DNA of 54,354 bases from a virus. The translations under genes and the position numbers were made by a program. This document shows positions 18,030-50,932 of this stretch, in pieces. Under the pieces are notes generated by a model. That model searched no databases. It worked only from the letters and a program-made list of their open reading frames with translations, and was not told the DNA's origin. Position 1 is the stretch's first letter. Every line of letters starts with the position of its first letter. The stretch is taken from positions 1 to 54,354 of the IMG/VR virus record IMGVR_UViG_3300045240_000043; one strand, given 5' to 3'.

Positions 18030-18103
18030 TAGAATGTTCGAATAGGCCCCGGCGACCAGTTGCATGGCCCCGGGGCGTGGCCACACCTGTTGCGAGGTGC
18101 GAC
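18030..18103 (+). promoter_or_regulatory. Structured leader of NUMOD4-HNH gene (copy A)
   Basis: A TAGAAT -10-like box lies at 18030-18035. Then comes hairpin 1, GCCCCGG (18046-18052) with CCGGGGC (18070-18076), and hairpin 2, CACCT (18084-18088) with AGGTG (18095-18099), which contains the ribosome-binding site just before the ATG at 18104. The same order is found before the HNH genes at 44896 and 50848, with different paired sequences. Confidence 0.6.
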
Positions 18104-18583
18104 ATGCCTGATGCTACCCATGAGACCTGGAAGCCAGTCGTCGGCTACGAGGGCCTCTATGAAGTCAGCGACCGTGGACGGGTCCGCACCGTGCCGCGCA
18201 TACTCAAGCCCGGCACCCTCAACCATGGCCATCTGCACGTAAACCTGTGGATCAACCGCAAGGGAAAAACGCGAACCGTCCACCGCCTTGTCGCCGCCGC
18301 GTTCATTGGCCCTTGCCCTGACGGGCAAGAGGTACGGCACCTGGACGGCAATCCCACAAACAACGCCGTCGAGAACCTGAAGTACGGCACGCGCAGCGAG
18401 AATCTGCTTGATCGAGTCCGGCATGGCACCCACAACAACGCCAGCAAGACGCACTGCAAGAACGGTCACGAGTTCACGCCTGAGAACACCATCGACAACC
18501 ACGGCAACCGTGGCTGCCGGGAATGCCACCGTGTCGCTTCCCTGGCCTGGTGGGACCGCCAAAGGAGCAAGGAGATCAAATGA
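18104..18583 (+). CDS. NUMOD4-HNH homing endonuclease
   Basis: 159 residues; the ATG at 18104 follows GAGGTG, and the longer upstream frame is the leader. WKPVVGYEGLYEVSDRGRVRTV is NUMOD4. The HNH core reads RTVHRLVAAAFIGPCPDGQEVRHLDGNPTNNAVENLKYGTRSENLLDRVRHGT over residues 65-110, with the H-x-D...NN...NL pattern. A C-terminal zinc-like motif follows (HCKNGHEFTPENT, CRECHR). It sits just upstream of the endolysin gene, its stop overlapping that gene's start (ATGA). A mobile intergenic insertion. Confidence 0.9.
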   Translation: MPDATHETWKPVVGYEGLYEVSDRGRVRTVPRILKPGTLNHGHLHVNLWINRKGKTRTVHRLVAAAFIGPCPDGQEVRHLDGNPTNNAVENLKYGTRSENLLDRVRHGTHNNASKTHCKNGHEFTPENTIDNHGNRGCRECHRVASLAWWDRQRSKEIK

Positions 18584-26677: not shown

Positions 26678-27648
26678 TGGCTGAACCTGAGGGGGTCACC
26701 TGGATGGACGGGTACCTGGCGGGCAGGTACGGCGACTCGCGGGCCGCTAACAAACCCTATGGTTCGGTTGAGTACGCCGATCCCAAGAACGGCAAGTACC
26801 CCATCGACACGAAGGCTCACGCCAAGGCCGCGCTCGCATATATCTCGATGCCGAAAAACGCGGCGAAGTATCCGCTGAACGGCGTCACGCTCTCCTCGGT
26901 GAAAGCCCGGATCAAGGCCGCGTGCAAGAAGTTCGGAGTCGATGTGAGCGAAGGTAACAGCGCCCCGGCCGGCGGCGAGTACCGCACCGTCCCGTTCAGC
27001 GTGGCAAACGTCGAGGCCAACGGCGACGGGCTCACGTTCGAGGGCTACGCCGCGGTGTACGACACCCCCACCCGGATCGCCGGGTGGGACGAGGACTTCG
27101 ACGAGCAGATCGCGATGGGCGCATTCCGTGCCGTCGCAGGCGGTGCCTATCCGGTGCTGATGTTCGAGCACGGCCGGCACCCGCTGATCGGCACGATGCC
27201 GCTGGGGAAGATCACCGATGCCCGCGAGGACGCGACCGGGCTGTGGATCGAGGCCAGGCTGACCGACAACTGGCTGATTCAGCCGGTGCGGGACGCGGTC
27301 GCCGCGCAGGCCCTCGACGGCATGTCGTTCCGGTTCACCGTCGACGGCGACGACGGCGAGGTCTGGATGGACCGCGCCGGTGACGTGCCCCTGCGGACCC
27401 TCACGTCGGTGAGCGTCCCCGAGCTCGGCCCGGTGGTTTTCCCGGCGTACGAGCCGACGACCGCCAGCGTGCGGTCGGTACTAGACAAGCTTCCGGTCAT
27501 CGGGCGGCCCCCGGCAGGTGCCAGGGCGGCGAGCGGCCGGGGAGACGTGACGCCGGGAGACGGCGCCATGTCGCGACCCCTATCCGAGCGGTTCCGCCGC
27601 GACGGCGAGGCCCTGGCCTTGCGCGGCATCGAGAAAGTGAAGATCTGA
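26677..27648 (+). CDS. Prohead protease (S78-like) with N-terminal extension
   Basis: 323 residues, ATG in a TGATG overlap; a GTG at 26674 is possible. Residues 1-90 form a module (YGSVEYADPKNGKYPIDTKAHAKAALAYI) known from cyanophage- and actinophage-type proteins of the DUF6582 kind. The S78-like protease follows: YAAVYDTPTRIAGWDEDFDEQI, MFEHGRHPLIG (catalytic His) and ALDGMSFRFTV (catalytic Ser). It matures the prohead by cutting the capsid N-terminal domain. Confidence 0.85.
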   Translation: MAEPEGVTWMDGYLAGRYGDSRAANKPYGSVEYADPKNGKYPIDTKAHAKAALAYISMPKNAAKYPLNGVTLSSVKARIKAACKKFGVDVSEGNSAPAGGEYRTVPFSVANVEANGDGLTFEGYAAVYDTPTRIAGWDEDFDEQIAMGAFRAVAGGAYPVLMFEHGRHPLIGTMPLGKITDAREDATGLWIEARLTDNWLIQPVRDAVAAQALDGMSFRFTVDGDDGEVWMDRAGDVPLRTLTSVSVPELGPVVFPAYEPTTASVRSVLDKLPVIGRPPAGARAASGRGDVTPGDGAMSRPLSERFRRDGEALALRGIEKVKI

Positions 27649-42113: not shown

Positions 42114-44165
42114 GTGTCGCTCGTTAAGACCGTGTCTGTCCAGGTCAACGGGATCGTCGCTGACGCCACCGCGAAGATCGGCTCCGTCACCGCGCAGGTG
42201 CAAGGGCTGCTGGACCGCTCGCCGGTCGAGGTGAAGGTCGACGCCAAAACGGAGGATGCGCAGCGGAAGCTGGCTGCGCTTGACGTGAACGCGGAGCGGC
42301 TGAAGAAGGCGTTCCCCGAGTTCGCGGTGAAACTCGACACCGGCCTGGCGACGGCGAAGCTGACGGCGCTGCGCGCGGAGATCCGCAAGACCGCGGAGAC
42401 GGGCGGCGGCGCGGGCGCGGCCGGGGGGGCTAGCGGCGGCTTCCTCGGCCTGCTCGGCCCGCTGGGAGCGCTCTTCTCGGGCGGCTCGGGGATCGCGATC
42501 GGCATCGCCGCACTGACCCCGGTCATCGCAGCGCTCGGCACTGTCTCGCTGGCCGCCGGCGCGGGCATCGCCGGGTTCGGGGCGCTCGCCCTGCCGACGT
42601 TCCTGAAGATCTCCACGGCCCTGTCCAAGATCAGCAAGGATCAGCAGGCGGTGACGCAGGCGACGACCCACGGGGCAAAGACGGCCGCGCTCGCAACGCT
42701 GAAAGCCGACTACGCCAGCCTGCCGGCGCCTATCGCCACGGCGGTGAAGGCCGTCCAGGGCCTTGAGACGGCGTTCGGGAAGCTCGCGAAGGCGTTCCAG
42801 CCGGAGGCGCTGAAGATGCTGGGCATCGGCCTGAAGATCGCCGGGGACGCGATGGGGCCGCTGGCGGTGATCGCGAAGACCGCGGCGCCGTTCGTCGACG
42901 CGATCGCGAAGAGCATCGGCGTCACGCTGGTGAAGTCGCTGAAGCTGCTGGAGCCGCAGATCAAGCCCGCGATGGGCGCGTTCGTGCCGCTACTCGGGTC
43001 CATCTCGAAACTGTTCCTGGTGCTGCTGGCGTCCCTGCTGAAGAACATCCCGACCTGGGTGAAGCTCACGAACGCGATCATTGCCCTGATCAACGCGACG
43101 ACGCCGCTGATCCCCTACCTGGTCGATTTCATCGCCGAGATGGGCCGCGTCGAGGTCGTCGTCATCAGGGCCGTCGCGTGGTTCCTTACCCGGCTGCCGA
43201 ACGCGATCAAGGCCACCATCCACTGGATAGCGAACGCCATCGACAAGTTCCGCGAGGTCGTCGTCCAGATCGGGCAGGCGGTCAACGCGATCGGCGCCAG
43301 CATCACCCAGATGGTCCTCGACGTGGGATCCGGCATCGGGAAGGTCGTCTCGTTCTTCACCCACCTGCCGGGCCGGATCGCATCCGCGCTGTCCGGGCTC
43401 GGCACGCTGCTGTACAACATCGGCAAGCACGCCGTCCAGATGATCATTAACGGGATGCTGTCGCTGTGGCACAAGCTGACGGGCCTGTTTGACCGCATCA
43501 AGGGCTTCCTCGGGTTCGGCGGCGGCGGCGGGGGCGTGCCGGGCGGGAAGCTGCCGAACGTCAACGTGGGGCTCGGTTCCGGTTCCGCGAACGCCAGCCT
43601 CGCCCGGCAGATGATGCCGTCGTGGGGCACGGGCGCGAACTGGGCCGCGTGGAACTACGTCGGGCAGCGCGAGTCCGGGTGGAACTCCACCATCCAGAAC
43701 GCGGCGTCCGGCGCGCTGGGCATCGCCCAGGCCCTCGGCCACGGCGTGGCGGGCGGCGGCGGCTCGCTCGGCAACGAGTACGGCGGCTACGGGCTGTCGA
43801 CGGCCGGCGACCGGCTGGCCAACTCCGGCGTCCCGCAACCGCAGATCTCGTGGATGGTCAACTACATCCGCAGCAAGTACGGCGGCCCGCAGCAGGCCGC
43901 CGCGCATGAGCGGGCGTTCAACTGGTACGACCGCGGCGGCTTCATCCCCACGGGCGCGTCGGTGGCCATCAACAACACCGGCGCCCCAGAGCGGGTGCTG
44001 TCCGGTTCGCAGGAGATGGCCATCGTGTCGCTGCTGCGTGACATCCGGGACATCCTGCGGCAGTCCCCGTCAGCGACGGGCACGGCGATGGCCCGCGGAC
44101 TGCAGGGCACCGCCCGCCGCGCCGGTGCACGCGGCATGTACTCGGCACGCGGGCCGTGGGCCTGA
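42114..44165 (+). CDS. Tape measure protein with lytic-transglycosylase-like domain
   Basis: 683 residues, GTG. N-terminal chaperone-binding and helical region, several hydrophobic helices (about 105-165 and 290-360), then at about 500-600 an SLT-like domain (AWNYVGQRESGWNSTIQNAASGALGIAQALGHG; RESGW has the catalytic Glu; WMVNYIRSKYGGPQQA ends it). The tail ends GGFIPTGASVAINNTGAPERVLSG, typical of actinophage tape measures. At 683 residues it is short, predicting a tail near 100 nm. The antisense HNH gene overlaps its 3' end. Confidence 0.9.
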   Translation: MSLVKTVSVQVNGIVADATAKIGSVTAQVQGLLDRSPVEVKVDAKTEDAQRKLAALDVNAERLKKAFPEFAVKLDTGLATAKLTALRAEIRKTAETGGGAGAAGGASGGFLGLLGPLGALFSGGSGIAIGIAALTPVIAALGTVSLAAGAGIAGFGALALPTFLKISTALSKISKDQQAVTQATTHGAKTAALATLKADYASLPAPIATAVKAVQGLETAFGKLAKAFQPEALKMLGIGLKIAGDAMGPLAVIAKTAAPFVDAIAKSIGVTLVKSLKLLEPQIKPAMGAFVPLLGSISKLFLVLLASLLKNIPTWVKLTNAIIALINATTPLIPYLVDFIAEMGRVEVVVIRAVAWFLTRLPNAIKATIHWIANAIDKFREVVVQIGQAVNAIGASITQMVLDVGSGIGKVVSFFTHLPGRIASALSGLGTLLYNIGKHAVQMIINGMLSLWHKLTGLFDRIKGFLGFGGGGGGVPGGKLPNVNVGLGSGSANASLARQMMPSWGTGANWAAWNYVGQRESGWNSTIQNAASGALGIAQALGHGVAGGGGSLGNEYGGYGLSTAGDRLANSGVPQPQISWMVNYIRSKYGGPQQAAAHERAFNWYDRGGFIPTGASVAINNTGAPERVLSGSQEMAIVSLLRDIRDILRQSPSATGTAMARGLQGTARRAGARGMYSARGPWA

Positions 44166-44896
44166 TGGCGTCCGACAGCGGGAGGGTCGCGCCAGATCTC
44201 GCGTCGCACGATCTTCGATACGACTGGCTGACTGATGCCGAACTCACGCGCAAGCGGTCGCTGCTGTTCGCCAGCCGCCGCACGACGCCGGATCTCGCCG
44301 ACGTCTGCCCAGGTGACCTTCGCGGCCCAGTGCCGTTCACCGGCCACCCAGGTACGCGGGCGCACTTCCGTGCCATCTGCGAGATGAGCCCACTTCTTCC
44401 CGTTGACGGCTTCGCAGATCGCAGACTGCGTTACGCCGTATTCGCGTGCGAGCGCGGTCTGAGTCTCGCCATCTGCGTACCGCCGCTTGCAATCCGCGAC
44501 GATCTCGGCTGTCAGCTTCGCCGACCCGCATCGCTCACCACGAGGGGCAGTACCGTCCCGCACCATGTCGGCCATGTTCTGCAGCCGCGTGCCGTAACTC
44601 AGGTTGACGAGCCGGTTATCCATTGCCCGGCCAGGTCCGTGCAAAGACTCCATGCCCGGCGGACACGGACCAACGAAAGCCTCCAGCACGAGCTGATGCA
44701 CGAGACGGCTCTTGGCTTTCCGCTCCCGGTAAAGAGCAACGGTCAGGTGCCCGGCGCTCAGGCCAGGAGCCAGTACGCCGCCTCGTTTGCCGCTCCCGCG
44801 ACCAGCGTGGAAACTGCGCACGCGGCCGAGATCACTGACCTCGTACAAGCCTTCATAGCCCGCGATAGGAAGCCATCGCTCAGTAGGGTCATCCAT
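43862..44896 (-). CDS. NUMOD4-HNH endonuclease with antisense C-terminal extension
   Basis: 344 residues as an ORF, ATG at 44896. Residues 7-30 are NUMOD4 (RWLPIAGYEGLYEVSDLGRVRSF); HNH-like core at 60-100 (LVHQLVLEAFVGPCPPGMESLHGPGRAMDNRLVNLSYGT). Two HTH repeats follow (LTAEIVADCKRRYADGETQTALAREYGVTQSAICEAVNG and VTWADVGEIRRRAAAGEQQRPLAREFGISQPVVSKIVRREIW). The natural end should be near 44170, as in the HNH at 50309, but no stop occurs and the frame runs 300 bases antisense into the tape measure gene. Inserted directly after it. Confidence 0.75.
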   Translation of the reverse strand: MDDPTERWLPIAGYEGLYEVSDLGRVRSFHAGRGSGKRGGVLAPGLSAGHLTVALYRERKAKSRLVHQLVLEAFVGPCPPGMESLHGPGRAMDNRLVNLSYGTRLQNMADMVRDGTAPRGERCGSAKLTAEIVADCKRRYADGETQTALAREYGVTQSAICEAVNGKKWAHLADGTEVRPRTWVAGERHWAAKVTWADVGEIRRRAAAGEQQRPLAREFGISQPVVSKIVRREIWRDPPAVGRHQAHGPRAEYMPRAPARRAVPCSPRAIAVPVADGDCRRMSRMSRSSDTMAISCEPDSTRSGAPVLLMATDAPVGMKPPRSYQLNARSCAAACCGPPYLLRM

Positions 44897-44966
44897 AGCC
44901 ACACCTCCAATGTGGTCAGGCCCGGCTGTTGCGTTGACGCGCATAGCCGGGCCGCTTTCCATTTTA
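44897..44966 (-). promoter_or_regulatory. Structured leader of NUMOD4-HNH gene (copy B)
   Basis: Reading leftward: TAAAAT -10-like box (44966-44961); hairpin 1 GGCCCGGCT with AGCCGGGCC (44953-44945 with 44927-44919); hairpin 2 CCACA with TGTGG (44915-44911 with 44903-44899), with GGAGG in its loop; then ATG at 44896. The loop of hairpin 1 contains GCGTCAAC, shared with copy C. Confidence 0.6.
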
Positions 44967-50308: not shown

Positions 50309-50848
50309 TTAAATGTGTGACCAGGCCTTACGGTTGACTATCAAGCTGACGTTCTGGAAGCTCACGCCGTGTCGCCGCGCTATGGCTTCCAGCCGTTCGC
50401 CGTCGGCTCGCCTGCGGCGAATATCCAGAACGCCATCGGCTGTCAACTTGGCCAGCCCATGGCGTTCGCCCCGGTTACTGCTGCCGTCGCGGATCTTGTC
50501 GGCCATGTTCTCGCGGCGCGTGCCGTAGCAAAGCTGGCTCGCGCGGTTGTCCAGCTTGCCATTGGGACCGTGGCGACCTTCCTGGCCTTCGGGGCACGCT
50601 CCCGTAAACGCCGCAAGGACGAGGCGGTGAACAAGATGAGGCTCCTGGCTGCCGCGCCGCGAGAGGTAGACGACTGCATAGCCGCTCGCGTTAATCCACG
50701 GTTTAAGGATCTTGCCCTGGAAGGTCTTGACCTTGCCATCGGATCGGGTGATGGTCCGCAGCACGGAGCGCACGCGCCCTATGTCGCTGACTTCATAGAG
50801 GCCGACGTAGCCGGTGATGGGTAGCCAGCGCTCAGTAGGGTCATCCAT
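50309..50848 (-). CDS. NUMOD4-HNH homing endonuclease
   Basis: 179 residues, ATG at 50848. RWLPITGYVGLYEVSDIGRVRSVL is NUMOD4; HNH core PHLVHRLVLAAFTGACPEGQEGRHGPNGKLDNRASQLCYGTRRENMADKIRDGS (note RHGPNGKLDN in place of HLDG...NN). One C-terminal HTH (LTADGVLDIRRRRADGERLEAIARRHGVSFQNVSLIVNRKAW). Its stop abuts that of the giant tail gene. Same leader type and close similarity to the HNH at 44896 (MDDPTERWLPI start). Confidence 0.85.
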   Translation of the reverse strand: MDDPTERWLPITGYVGLYEVSDIGRVRSVLRTITRSDGKVKTFQGKILKPWINASGYAVVYLSRRGSQEPHLVHRLVLAAFTGACPEGQEGRHGPNGKLDNRASQLCYGTRRENMADKIRDGSSNRGERHGLAKLTADGVLDIRRRRADGERLEAIARRHGVSFQNVSLIVNRKAWSHI

Positions 50849-50932
50849 AGCCGCCTCCTGGTTTGGCGGTCAGGGTCCGGCAGCGGTGTTGACGCACCAA
50901 TCCGGACCCGCTTCATGTACCCCTTGATTCTA
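50849..50932 (-). promoter_or_regulatory. Structured leader of NUMOD4-HNH gene (copy C)
   Basis: Reading leftward: TAGAAT -10-like box (50932-50927); hairpin 1 GGGTCCGG with CCGGACCC (50909-50902 with 50880-50873), loop containing GCGTCAAC; hairpin 2 CCGCC with GGCGG (50869-50865 with 50855-50851) with AGGAGG partly inside; ATG at 50848. Confidence 0.6.

What the first reader, a model, noticed from the sequence alone, without database searches (positions are those of the whole stretch)
18030..18103. Covarying two-hairpin leader before NUMOD4-HNH gene, copy A
A -10 box, a GC hairpin and a second hairpin holding the ribosome-binding site precede this HNH gene. The same architecture stands before the HNH genes at 44896 and 50848 with different stems (CACCT/AGGTG, CCACA/TGTGG, CCGCC/GGCGG), so pairing, not sequence, is kept. 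T4 homing endonucleases are known to be translationally silenced by hairpins over the ribosome-binding site; this may be an actinophage version.
Basis: partly seen in the sequence, partly recalled or inferred. Interest (0 to 1): 0.75.

Follow-up and report, generated by a model that had tools for sequence, protein, structure and literature searches.

The report
Antisense RNA guarding mobile-gene starts
The two hairpins in front of this phage DNA-cutting gene look like the footprint of a small RNA made from the opposite strand, predicted to block the gene's translation start, and the same RNA cassette precedes many unrelated mobile genes in actinobacteria and their phages without appearing in the RNA family database.

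Summary
The two hairpins at 18030-18103, and their counterparts before the HNH genes at 44896 and 50848, are real, and pairing rather than sequence is conserved. But the selected structure lies on the opposite strand. Read antisense, the element is a ~70-nt RNA of two near-perfect hairpins. In 22 copy-A-like elements the paired cells are 382 Watson-Crick, 59 G-U and 4 A-C; in 42 held-out ones 748, 120 and 3. Antisense folding is better in 69 of 73 non-redundant elements. For copy A the sense z-score is -1.05 and the antisense -3.72.

An antisense -10 box (TANNNT) sits exactly at +4/+7 inside the coding start in 51 of 84 loci, against 2 of 327 control starts. The model never saw it, yet it recurs in 38 of 43 held-out loci. 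A sense -10 precedes the leader in 33 of 37 phage copies.

The cassette precedes NUMOD4-HNH, endonuclease VII-like, other HNH and GIY-YIG genes. In 77 of 394 Actinomycetes genomes (2 of 363 Gammaproteobacteria) it precedes other genes, including one beside RepSA and an integrase. No Rfam match. Best reading: a portable cis-antisense RNA that silences translation initiation of mobile genes. No expression data exist here.

The parts
18030..18035 (+). Copy A: sense -10 box TAGAAT of the HNH gene promoter
   Evidence: Sequence; sense TANNNT 10-26 nt before hairpin 1 in 33 of 37 phage copies versus 2 of 37 in a control stretch
18033..18106 (-). Copy A: predicted ~70-nt antisense RNA (5' end near 18104-18106, 3' end in the tail at 18045-18033)
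   Evidence: Antisense model R3, E 9.6e-15 (copy A was in the training set); antisense z -3.72, 0 of 200 shuffles
18080..18103 (-). Copy A: antisense hairpin H2' (9 bp, 6-nt loop), complementary to the Shine-Dalgarno region
   Evidence: Fold; helix 1 of A11: 8 of 9 pairs change on both sides, 93.8% of cells paired
18046..18076 (-). Copy A: antisense hairpin H1' (12 bp with one bulge, 6-nt loop), terminator-like
   Evidence: Fold; helix 2 of A11: 98.9% of cells paired, 7 of 12 pairs change on both sides; T-enriched tail across the family
18111..18116 (-). Copy A: antisense -10 box TAGCAT inside codons 3-5 of the HNH gene
   Evidence: at +4/+7 in 51 of 84 loci versus 2 of 327 control gene starts
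18104..18583 (+). Copy A: NUMOD4 + HNH_3 endonuclease gene, 159 aa
   Evidence: Pfam HNH_3 2.8e-15, NUMOD4 2.5e-12
44894..44965 (+). Copy B: predicted antisense RNA; H2' 44898-44916, H1' 44919-44953, T-rich tail GCTTTCCATTTT
   Evidence: Antisense z -5.15 versus sense -4.04; only weakly seen by the copy-A-type model R3 (E 0.29)
44884..44889 (+). Copy B: antisense -10 box TAGGGT inside the gene start
44961..44966 (-). Copy B: sense -10 box TAAAAT
43862..44896 (-). Copy B: NUMOD4-HNH_3 gene, reverse to the late genes
   Evidence: Pfam NUMOD4 6.5e-11, HNH_3 5.6e-8; 344 codons to the stop
50846..50921 (+). Copy C: predicted antisense RNA; H2' 50850-50870, H1' 50873-50909, tail GCTTCATGTACC
   Evidence: Antisense z -3.60, sense -3.49
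50836..50841 (+). Copy C: antisense -10 box TAGGGT inside the gene start
50927..50932 (-). Copy C: sense -10 box TAGAAT
50309..50848 (-). Copy C: NUMOD4-HNH_3 gene, 179 aa, reverse to the late genes
   Evidence: Pfam NUMOD4 1.4e-13, HNH_3 8e-7

Best explanation
Each leader is a compact control cassette with two promoters facing each other about 90 bp apart. The outer one starts the endonuclease mRNA just before hairpin 1. The inner one, whose -10 box lies at codons 2-5 of the gene, fires backwards and makes an antisense RNA of about 70 nt that begins at the start codon, folds into two near-perfect hairpins (H2', then H1') and ends at H1' with its T-rich tail. This RNA is fully complementary to the mRNA leader, Shine-Dalgarno site and start codon, so it would pair with the mRNA and stop translation of the endonuclease, or expose the mRNA to RNase III. 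Shown by sequence comparison: the antisense structure, its covariation, its strand, and the fixed antisense -10. Inferred: that it is transcribed, that H1' terminates it, and that it represses the gene in cis. A freshly entering copy would be expressed briefly until its antisense RNA builds up, a sensible dose control for a homing endonuclease or an integrative element.
For: Strand: A11 has 382 WC, 59 G-U, 4 A-C cells in antisense reading, covariation 0.594 versus 0.194 shuffled and at most 0.098 slid, 15 of 21 pairs changed on both sides. Held-out A12 (fitted to the model, so leaning to it): 99.1% paired, 17 of 21 pairs changed on both sides, 120 G-U versus 3 A-C. Antisense MFE lower in 69 of 73, mean 6.4 kcal/mol, z -4.45 versus -2.99. 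Copy A z -1.05 sense, -3.72 antisense. Promoter: antisense TANNNT at +4/+7 in 51 of 84 loci, 2 of 327 controls, Fisher 5e-40; 38 of 43 held-out loci, 29 at exactly +7. The genes are unrelated (Endonuclease_7, HNH, HNH_5, HNH_3, GIY-YIG, MUG113, resolvase), so protein conservation cannot explain it. T-rich tail after H1'. Sense -10 in 33 of 37 phage copies. Lineage-specific: 77 of 394 Actinomycetes versus 2 of 363 Gammaproteobacteria genomes.
Against: No transcript evidence of any kind. No conserved -35 for the antisense promoter. A consensus terminator scan found none at copy B, and the U-tract is short. Copy C folds about equally well on both strands. The sense hairpins also hide part of the Shine-Dalgarno site (mean probability unpaired 0.40), so a direct leader effect is not excluded. 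About a quarter of loci lack a clear antisense TANNNT.
Confidence: 0.76

Rival explanations
1. The sense mRNA leader itself is the regulator: hairpin 2 hides the ribosome-binding site and hairpin 1 stabilises the 5' end, a T4-like silencing device.
For: The Shine-Dalgarno site is partly paired in sense (mean P unpaired 0.40); sense leaders fold better than shuffles on average (z -2.99); T4 precedent (PMC2988022).
Against: Departures from Watson-Crick are A-C in sense and G-U in antisense; copy A is not unusually stable in sense; it does not explain the fixed antisense -10 box inside the gene; no promoter inside the hairpin to let transcripts escape.
Confidence: 0.12
2. The antisense transcript is a trans-acting small RNA (for example one using its C-rich, anti-Shine-Dalgarno-like segment on many mRNAs), and the overlapping gene start is secondary.
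For: Structure conserved more than sequence; several copies per genome (up to 11); segment complementary to Shine-Dalgarno partly unpaired (P 0.49); some overlapping ORFs are very short.
Against: The 5' end coincides with a real gene start over and over, including full-length endonuclease genes of unrelated families; Shine-Dalgarno-like sequence present in 49 of 52 loci.
Confidence: 0.1
3. A DNA-level element: an inverted repeat bound by a protein, a cruciform, or a transcription terminator between convergent promoters, with no RNA-RNA pairing.
For: Inverted repeats lie next to promoters on both sides; T-rich tail on the antisense side.
Against: A DNA palindrome would show A-C and G-U departures equally; observed 59:4 and 120:3 on one strand; stem sequences differ between copies, so no common binding sequence.
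Confidence: 0.02

Closest known systems
Cis-encoded countertranscript RNAs of mobile elements: RNA-OUT of IS10, CopA of plasmid R1, SymR/SymE (from my own knowledge; not searched by sequence except through Rfam)
   Same: Short structured antisense RNA from an inner convergent promoter, complementary to the start region of a mobile-element or selfish gene.
   Different: No Rfam family reaches threshold; the nearest contact is a sub-threshold symR match at L265 (28.4 bits versus 61 required). Here one structural family is shared by unrelated genes and many genomes, with the antisense promoter inside the first codons.
T4 homing-endonuclease RBS hairpins (I-TevI, mobE, segB; PMC2988022)
   Same: RNA structure at the ribosome-binding site of a phage homing endonuclease.
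   Different: There the sense mRNA folds on itself and a late promoter inside the hairpin frees the site. Here the sense promoter lies upstream of both hairpins and the selected strand is antisense.
SAS/ESAS of cluster K mycobacteriophages (PMC3203893, PMC11373665)
   Same: Inverted repeat plus promoter just before a Shine-Dalgarno-containing start region in several genes of one phage.
   Different: SAS is a conserved 13-bp sequence and ESAS repeats contain the promoter hexamers. SAS is not enriched in the window (19 matches with up to 3 mismatches, 20 expected, none at the leaders), and our hairpins lie downstream of the sense -10.

Membership tests
Cis-antisense (countertranscript) RNA | Antisense promoter converging on the target gene start | tested here: met
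   TANNNT at +4/+7 in 51 of 84 loci versus 2 of 327 controls; 38 of 43 held-out loci; no -35 consensus
Cis-antisense (countertranscript) RNA | Structure selected on the antisense strand | tested here: met
   G-U versus A-C 59:4 and 120:3; antisense MFE lower in 69 of 73
Cis-antisense (countertranscript) RNA | Own terminator | tested here: inconclusive
   H1' followed by a T-enriched stretch (about 0.4-0.67 in the first positions versus about 0.2 further on), but consensus scan negative at copy B
Cis-antisense (countertranscript) RNA | RNA is made and represses its target | not testable with these tools
   Needs RNA-seq and reporter assays
T4-type RBS-hairpin silencing | Ribosome-binding site sequestered by a stable sense mRNA hairpin | tested here: inconclusive
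   Mean P unpaired of the site 0.40; copy A sense z -1.05
T4-type RBS-hairpin silencing | Promoter within or after the hairpin 5' arm so that late transcripts escape | tested here: not met
   Sense -10 lies 10-26 nt before hairpin 1 in 33 of 37 phage copies
SAS/ESAS of cluster K phages | 13-bp sequence GGGATAGGAGCCC before the start codon | tested here: not met
   No enrichment in the window, no match at the three leaders
Any Rfam 15 family | Score at or above the gathering threshold | tested here: not met
   No match in the window; only an unrelated tRNA in 18 further loci; best sub-threshold match symR, E 0.11

The most novel reading that the evidence does not exclude
An undescribed family of ~70-nt antisense RNAs, widespread in Actinomycetota and also present in another group of NUMOD4-HNH phage genes, travels as a portable promoter-antisense-promoter cassette. 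It has been picked up by several unrelated homing-endonuclease types, by an integrative element and by multi-copy small-protein genes, and gives each an individually coded translational off-switch whose specificity changes by covariation.
Probability: 0.65. Interest if true: 0.82.

Novelty: new variant of a known kind. Interest (0 to 1): 0.74.

Why it matters
How phage homing endonucleases outside the T4 group are kept from harming their host phage is little known. A single antisense-RNA cassette shared by unrelated endonucleases would be a general answer, and would show that a regulatory RNA can be a mobile module in its own right. It adds a candidate large RNA family to actinobacterial biology, with several copies in many genomes, and makes a cheap prediction: strand-specific RNA-seq of almost any infected or lysogenic actinobacterium should show short antisense transcripts exactly at these starts.

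Tried and rejected
1) NUMOD4-HNH-specific leader: rejected, because whole-contig and genome searches found the element before Endonuclease_7, HNH, HNH_5, GIY-YIG, MUG113, resolvase and other genes. 2) Sense-strand RBS hairpin as the selected structure: rejected by the G-U/A-C asymmetry and strand-wise folding. 3) ESAS/SAS: not met. 4) Known Rfam family: none. 5) Chance or GC artefact: the Gammaproteobacteria control gave 3 of 363 genomes with model R2 (E up to 0.05) and 2 of 363 with R3 (E up to 0.01), against 50 and 77 of 394 Actinomycetes. 6) A simple two-hairpin descriptor on sense strands separated leaders only weakly from shuffles; replaced by covariance models. 7) A -35 consensus for the antisense promoter: looked for, not found. 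8) Literature: nothing describing this in the held library; a phage-wide structured-RNA survey (Fremin and colleagues, from memory) could not be read, so an unnamed cluster there is possible. 9) Plasmid search for named Streptomyces examples gave one partial match.

Full report
Observation. The window is an IMG/VR virus record of 54,354 bases. Before each lie a TANNNT -10 box, a GC-rich hairpin, a short linker and a second hairpin round the Shine-Dalgarno site. No Rfam family matches.

Relatives. Protein searches of IMG/VR and GTDB genomes brought about 400 loci. Many NUMOD4-HNH genes in unrelated contigs had the same leader order with different stems. A covariance model (R1), run over whole loci, hit almost only the stretch immediately before the NUMOD4-HNH start. 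Covariation on 34 leaders was strong.

Beyond NUMOD4. The second model (R2), run on whole phage contigs, found further copies in the same phages. These precede Endonuclease_7, HNH, HNH_5, GIY-YIG, MUG113 and other endonuclease genes. In 394 Actinomycetes genomes 50 had hits. The genes there include Frankia-40-domain proteins, a resolvase and HNH genes, and one Frankia-40 gene lies between a RepSA replication initiator and a phage integrase, the layout of an actinomycete integrative element. Gammaproteobacteria gave 3 of 363.

Which strand. Counting departures from Watson-Crick pairing showed A-C in the mRNA reading and almost no G-U. On the reverse complement these become G-U. Antisense folding is better for 69 of 73 non-redundant elements (mean 6.4 kcal/mol; mean z -4.45 versus -2.99), while control coding 65-mers show no such bias. 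For copy A the sense fold is unremarkable (z -1.05) and the antisense fold is two clean hairpins (z -3.72, 0 of 200 shuffles). In 22 copy-A-like elements aligned in antisense, 96.7% of cells pair and 15 of 21 pairs show double changes, with 59 G-U and 4 A-C cells. In 42 held-out elements 99.1% pair and 17 of 21 show double changes, with 120 G-U and 3 A-C; that alignment was fitted to the model and leans to it.

Antisense promoter. In the sense strand the pattern ANNNTA (antisense TANNNT) stands at +4 or +7 after the start codon (counting its first base as 0) in 51 of 84 non-redundant loci and in 2 of 327 control gene starts (Fisher 5e-40). It is usually preceded by G or GG, with no visible -35. 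In 43 loci found by the antisense model R3, which does not include this region, 38 have it and 29 have it at exactly +7. Because the proteins are unrelated, amino-acid conservation cannot produce this. Copies A, B and C have TAGCAT, TAGGGT and TAGGGT there. A promoter at that place would start RNA at about the start codon and run through H2' and H1'. The stretch after H1' is T-enriched, as for an intrinsic terminator, but a consensus scan did not call one at copy B.

Sense promoter. TANNNT lies 10-26 nt before hairpin 1 in 33 of 37 phage elements (2 of 37 in a control stretch) and 18 of 47 bacterial ones. Phage copies therefore carry face-to-face promoters around a ~70-bp structured overlap.

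Spread. The antisense model scores copy A at E 9.6e-15 (training member) and finds 77 of 394 Actinomycetes genomes, some with 8-11 copies, against 2 of 363 Gammaproteobacteria genomes. Many copies precede short unnamed proteins with an RVRPY-like motif, others HATPase_c_2, DUF6415, Bro-N-like, HNH and GIY-YIG genes. Rfam does not contain it. A separate group of NUMOD4-HNH phage genes that the actinobacterial models score weakly or miss (L107, L146, L168 and others) shows the same antisense architecture, antisense more stable in 12 of 13 and an antisense -10 in 9 of 13. Named phages carry it: in Mycobacterium phage Chevrolet it lies before gp31, an HNH gene between lysin A and lysin B.

Mechanism. 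The most economical reading is a cis-antisense RNA that pairs with the mRNA leader, Shine-Dalgarno site and start codon, silencing translation initiation, as RNA-OUT does for IS10 transposase (own knowledge). Shown: structure, strand, covariation, fixed -10 boxes on both sides. Inferred: transcription, termination, repression. The sense hairpins may add a direct effect, since the Shine-Dalgarno site is only 40% unpaired in sense on average.

Verdict. The kind, cis-antisense RNA of a mobile gene, is known; the family, its spread over unrelated genes, and its promoter inside the coding start are, as far as these tools show, not described.

Noticed in passing
L523:1185-1784 (Mycobacterium phage Chevrolet 27455-28054): The annotated start of HNH gene gp31 lies upstream of the leader, overlapping lysin A; the leader (27486-27558) points to a start codon about 100 nt further on. 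In ArcusAngelus and Inventum the match list shows no HNH gene annotated there.
   Followed up: partly
L573-L592, L533-L553: In Streptomyces-like genomes the RNA occurs up to 11 times per genome, before short unnamed proteins that often share an RVRPY-like motif (for example MSILPSRRSRRIRPYISVLEHRR). Their function is unknown.
   Followed up: partly
L518:8028-8321: A Frankia-40-domain protein gene with this leader lies between a pSAM2-type RepSA gene and a phage integrase gene, so the protein may be an unrecognised integrative-element gene.
   Followed up: partly
L172, L258, L308, L321 leaders: The apical 7-nt loop of hairpin 1 occurs as CTACCAA in some copies and as its reverse complement TTGGTAG in others, as if the loop had been inverted by template switching between the arms.
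   Followed up: no
L107, L137, L145, L146, L163, L168 leaders: A second group of phages, host unknown, has the same antisense architecture before NUMOD4-HNH genes, scored only weakly or missed by the actinobacterial models.
   Followed up: partly
L523:1185-1784: In Chevrolet the HNH gene sits between lysin A and lysin B; lysis genes may be a favoured homing site for this endonuclease type.
   Followed up: no
window:41430-41501 (-): A weak match (18.2 bits, E 0.014) to the antisense model inside a coding stretch of the + strand, probably chance.
   Followed up: partly
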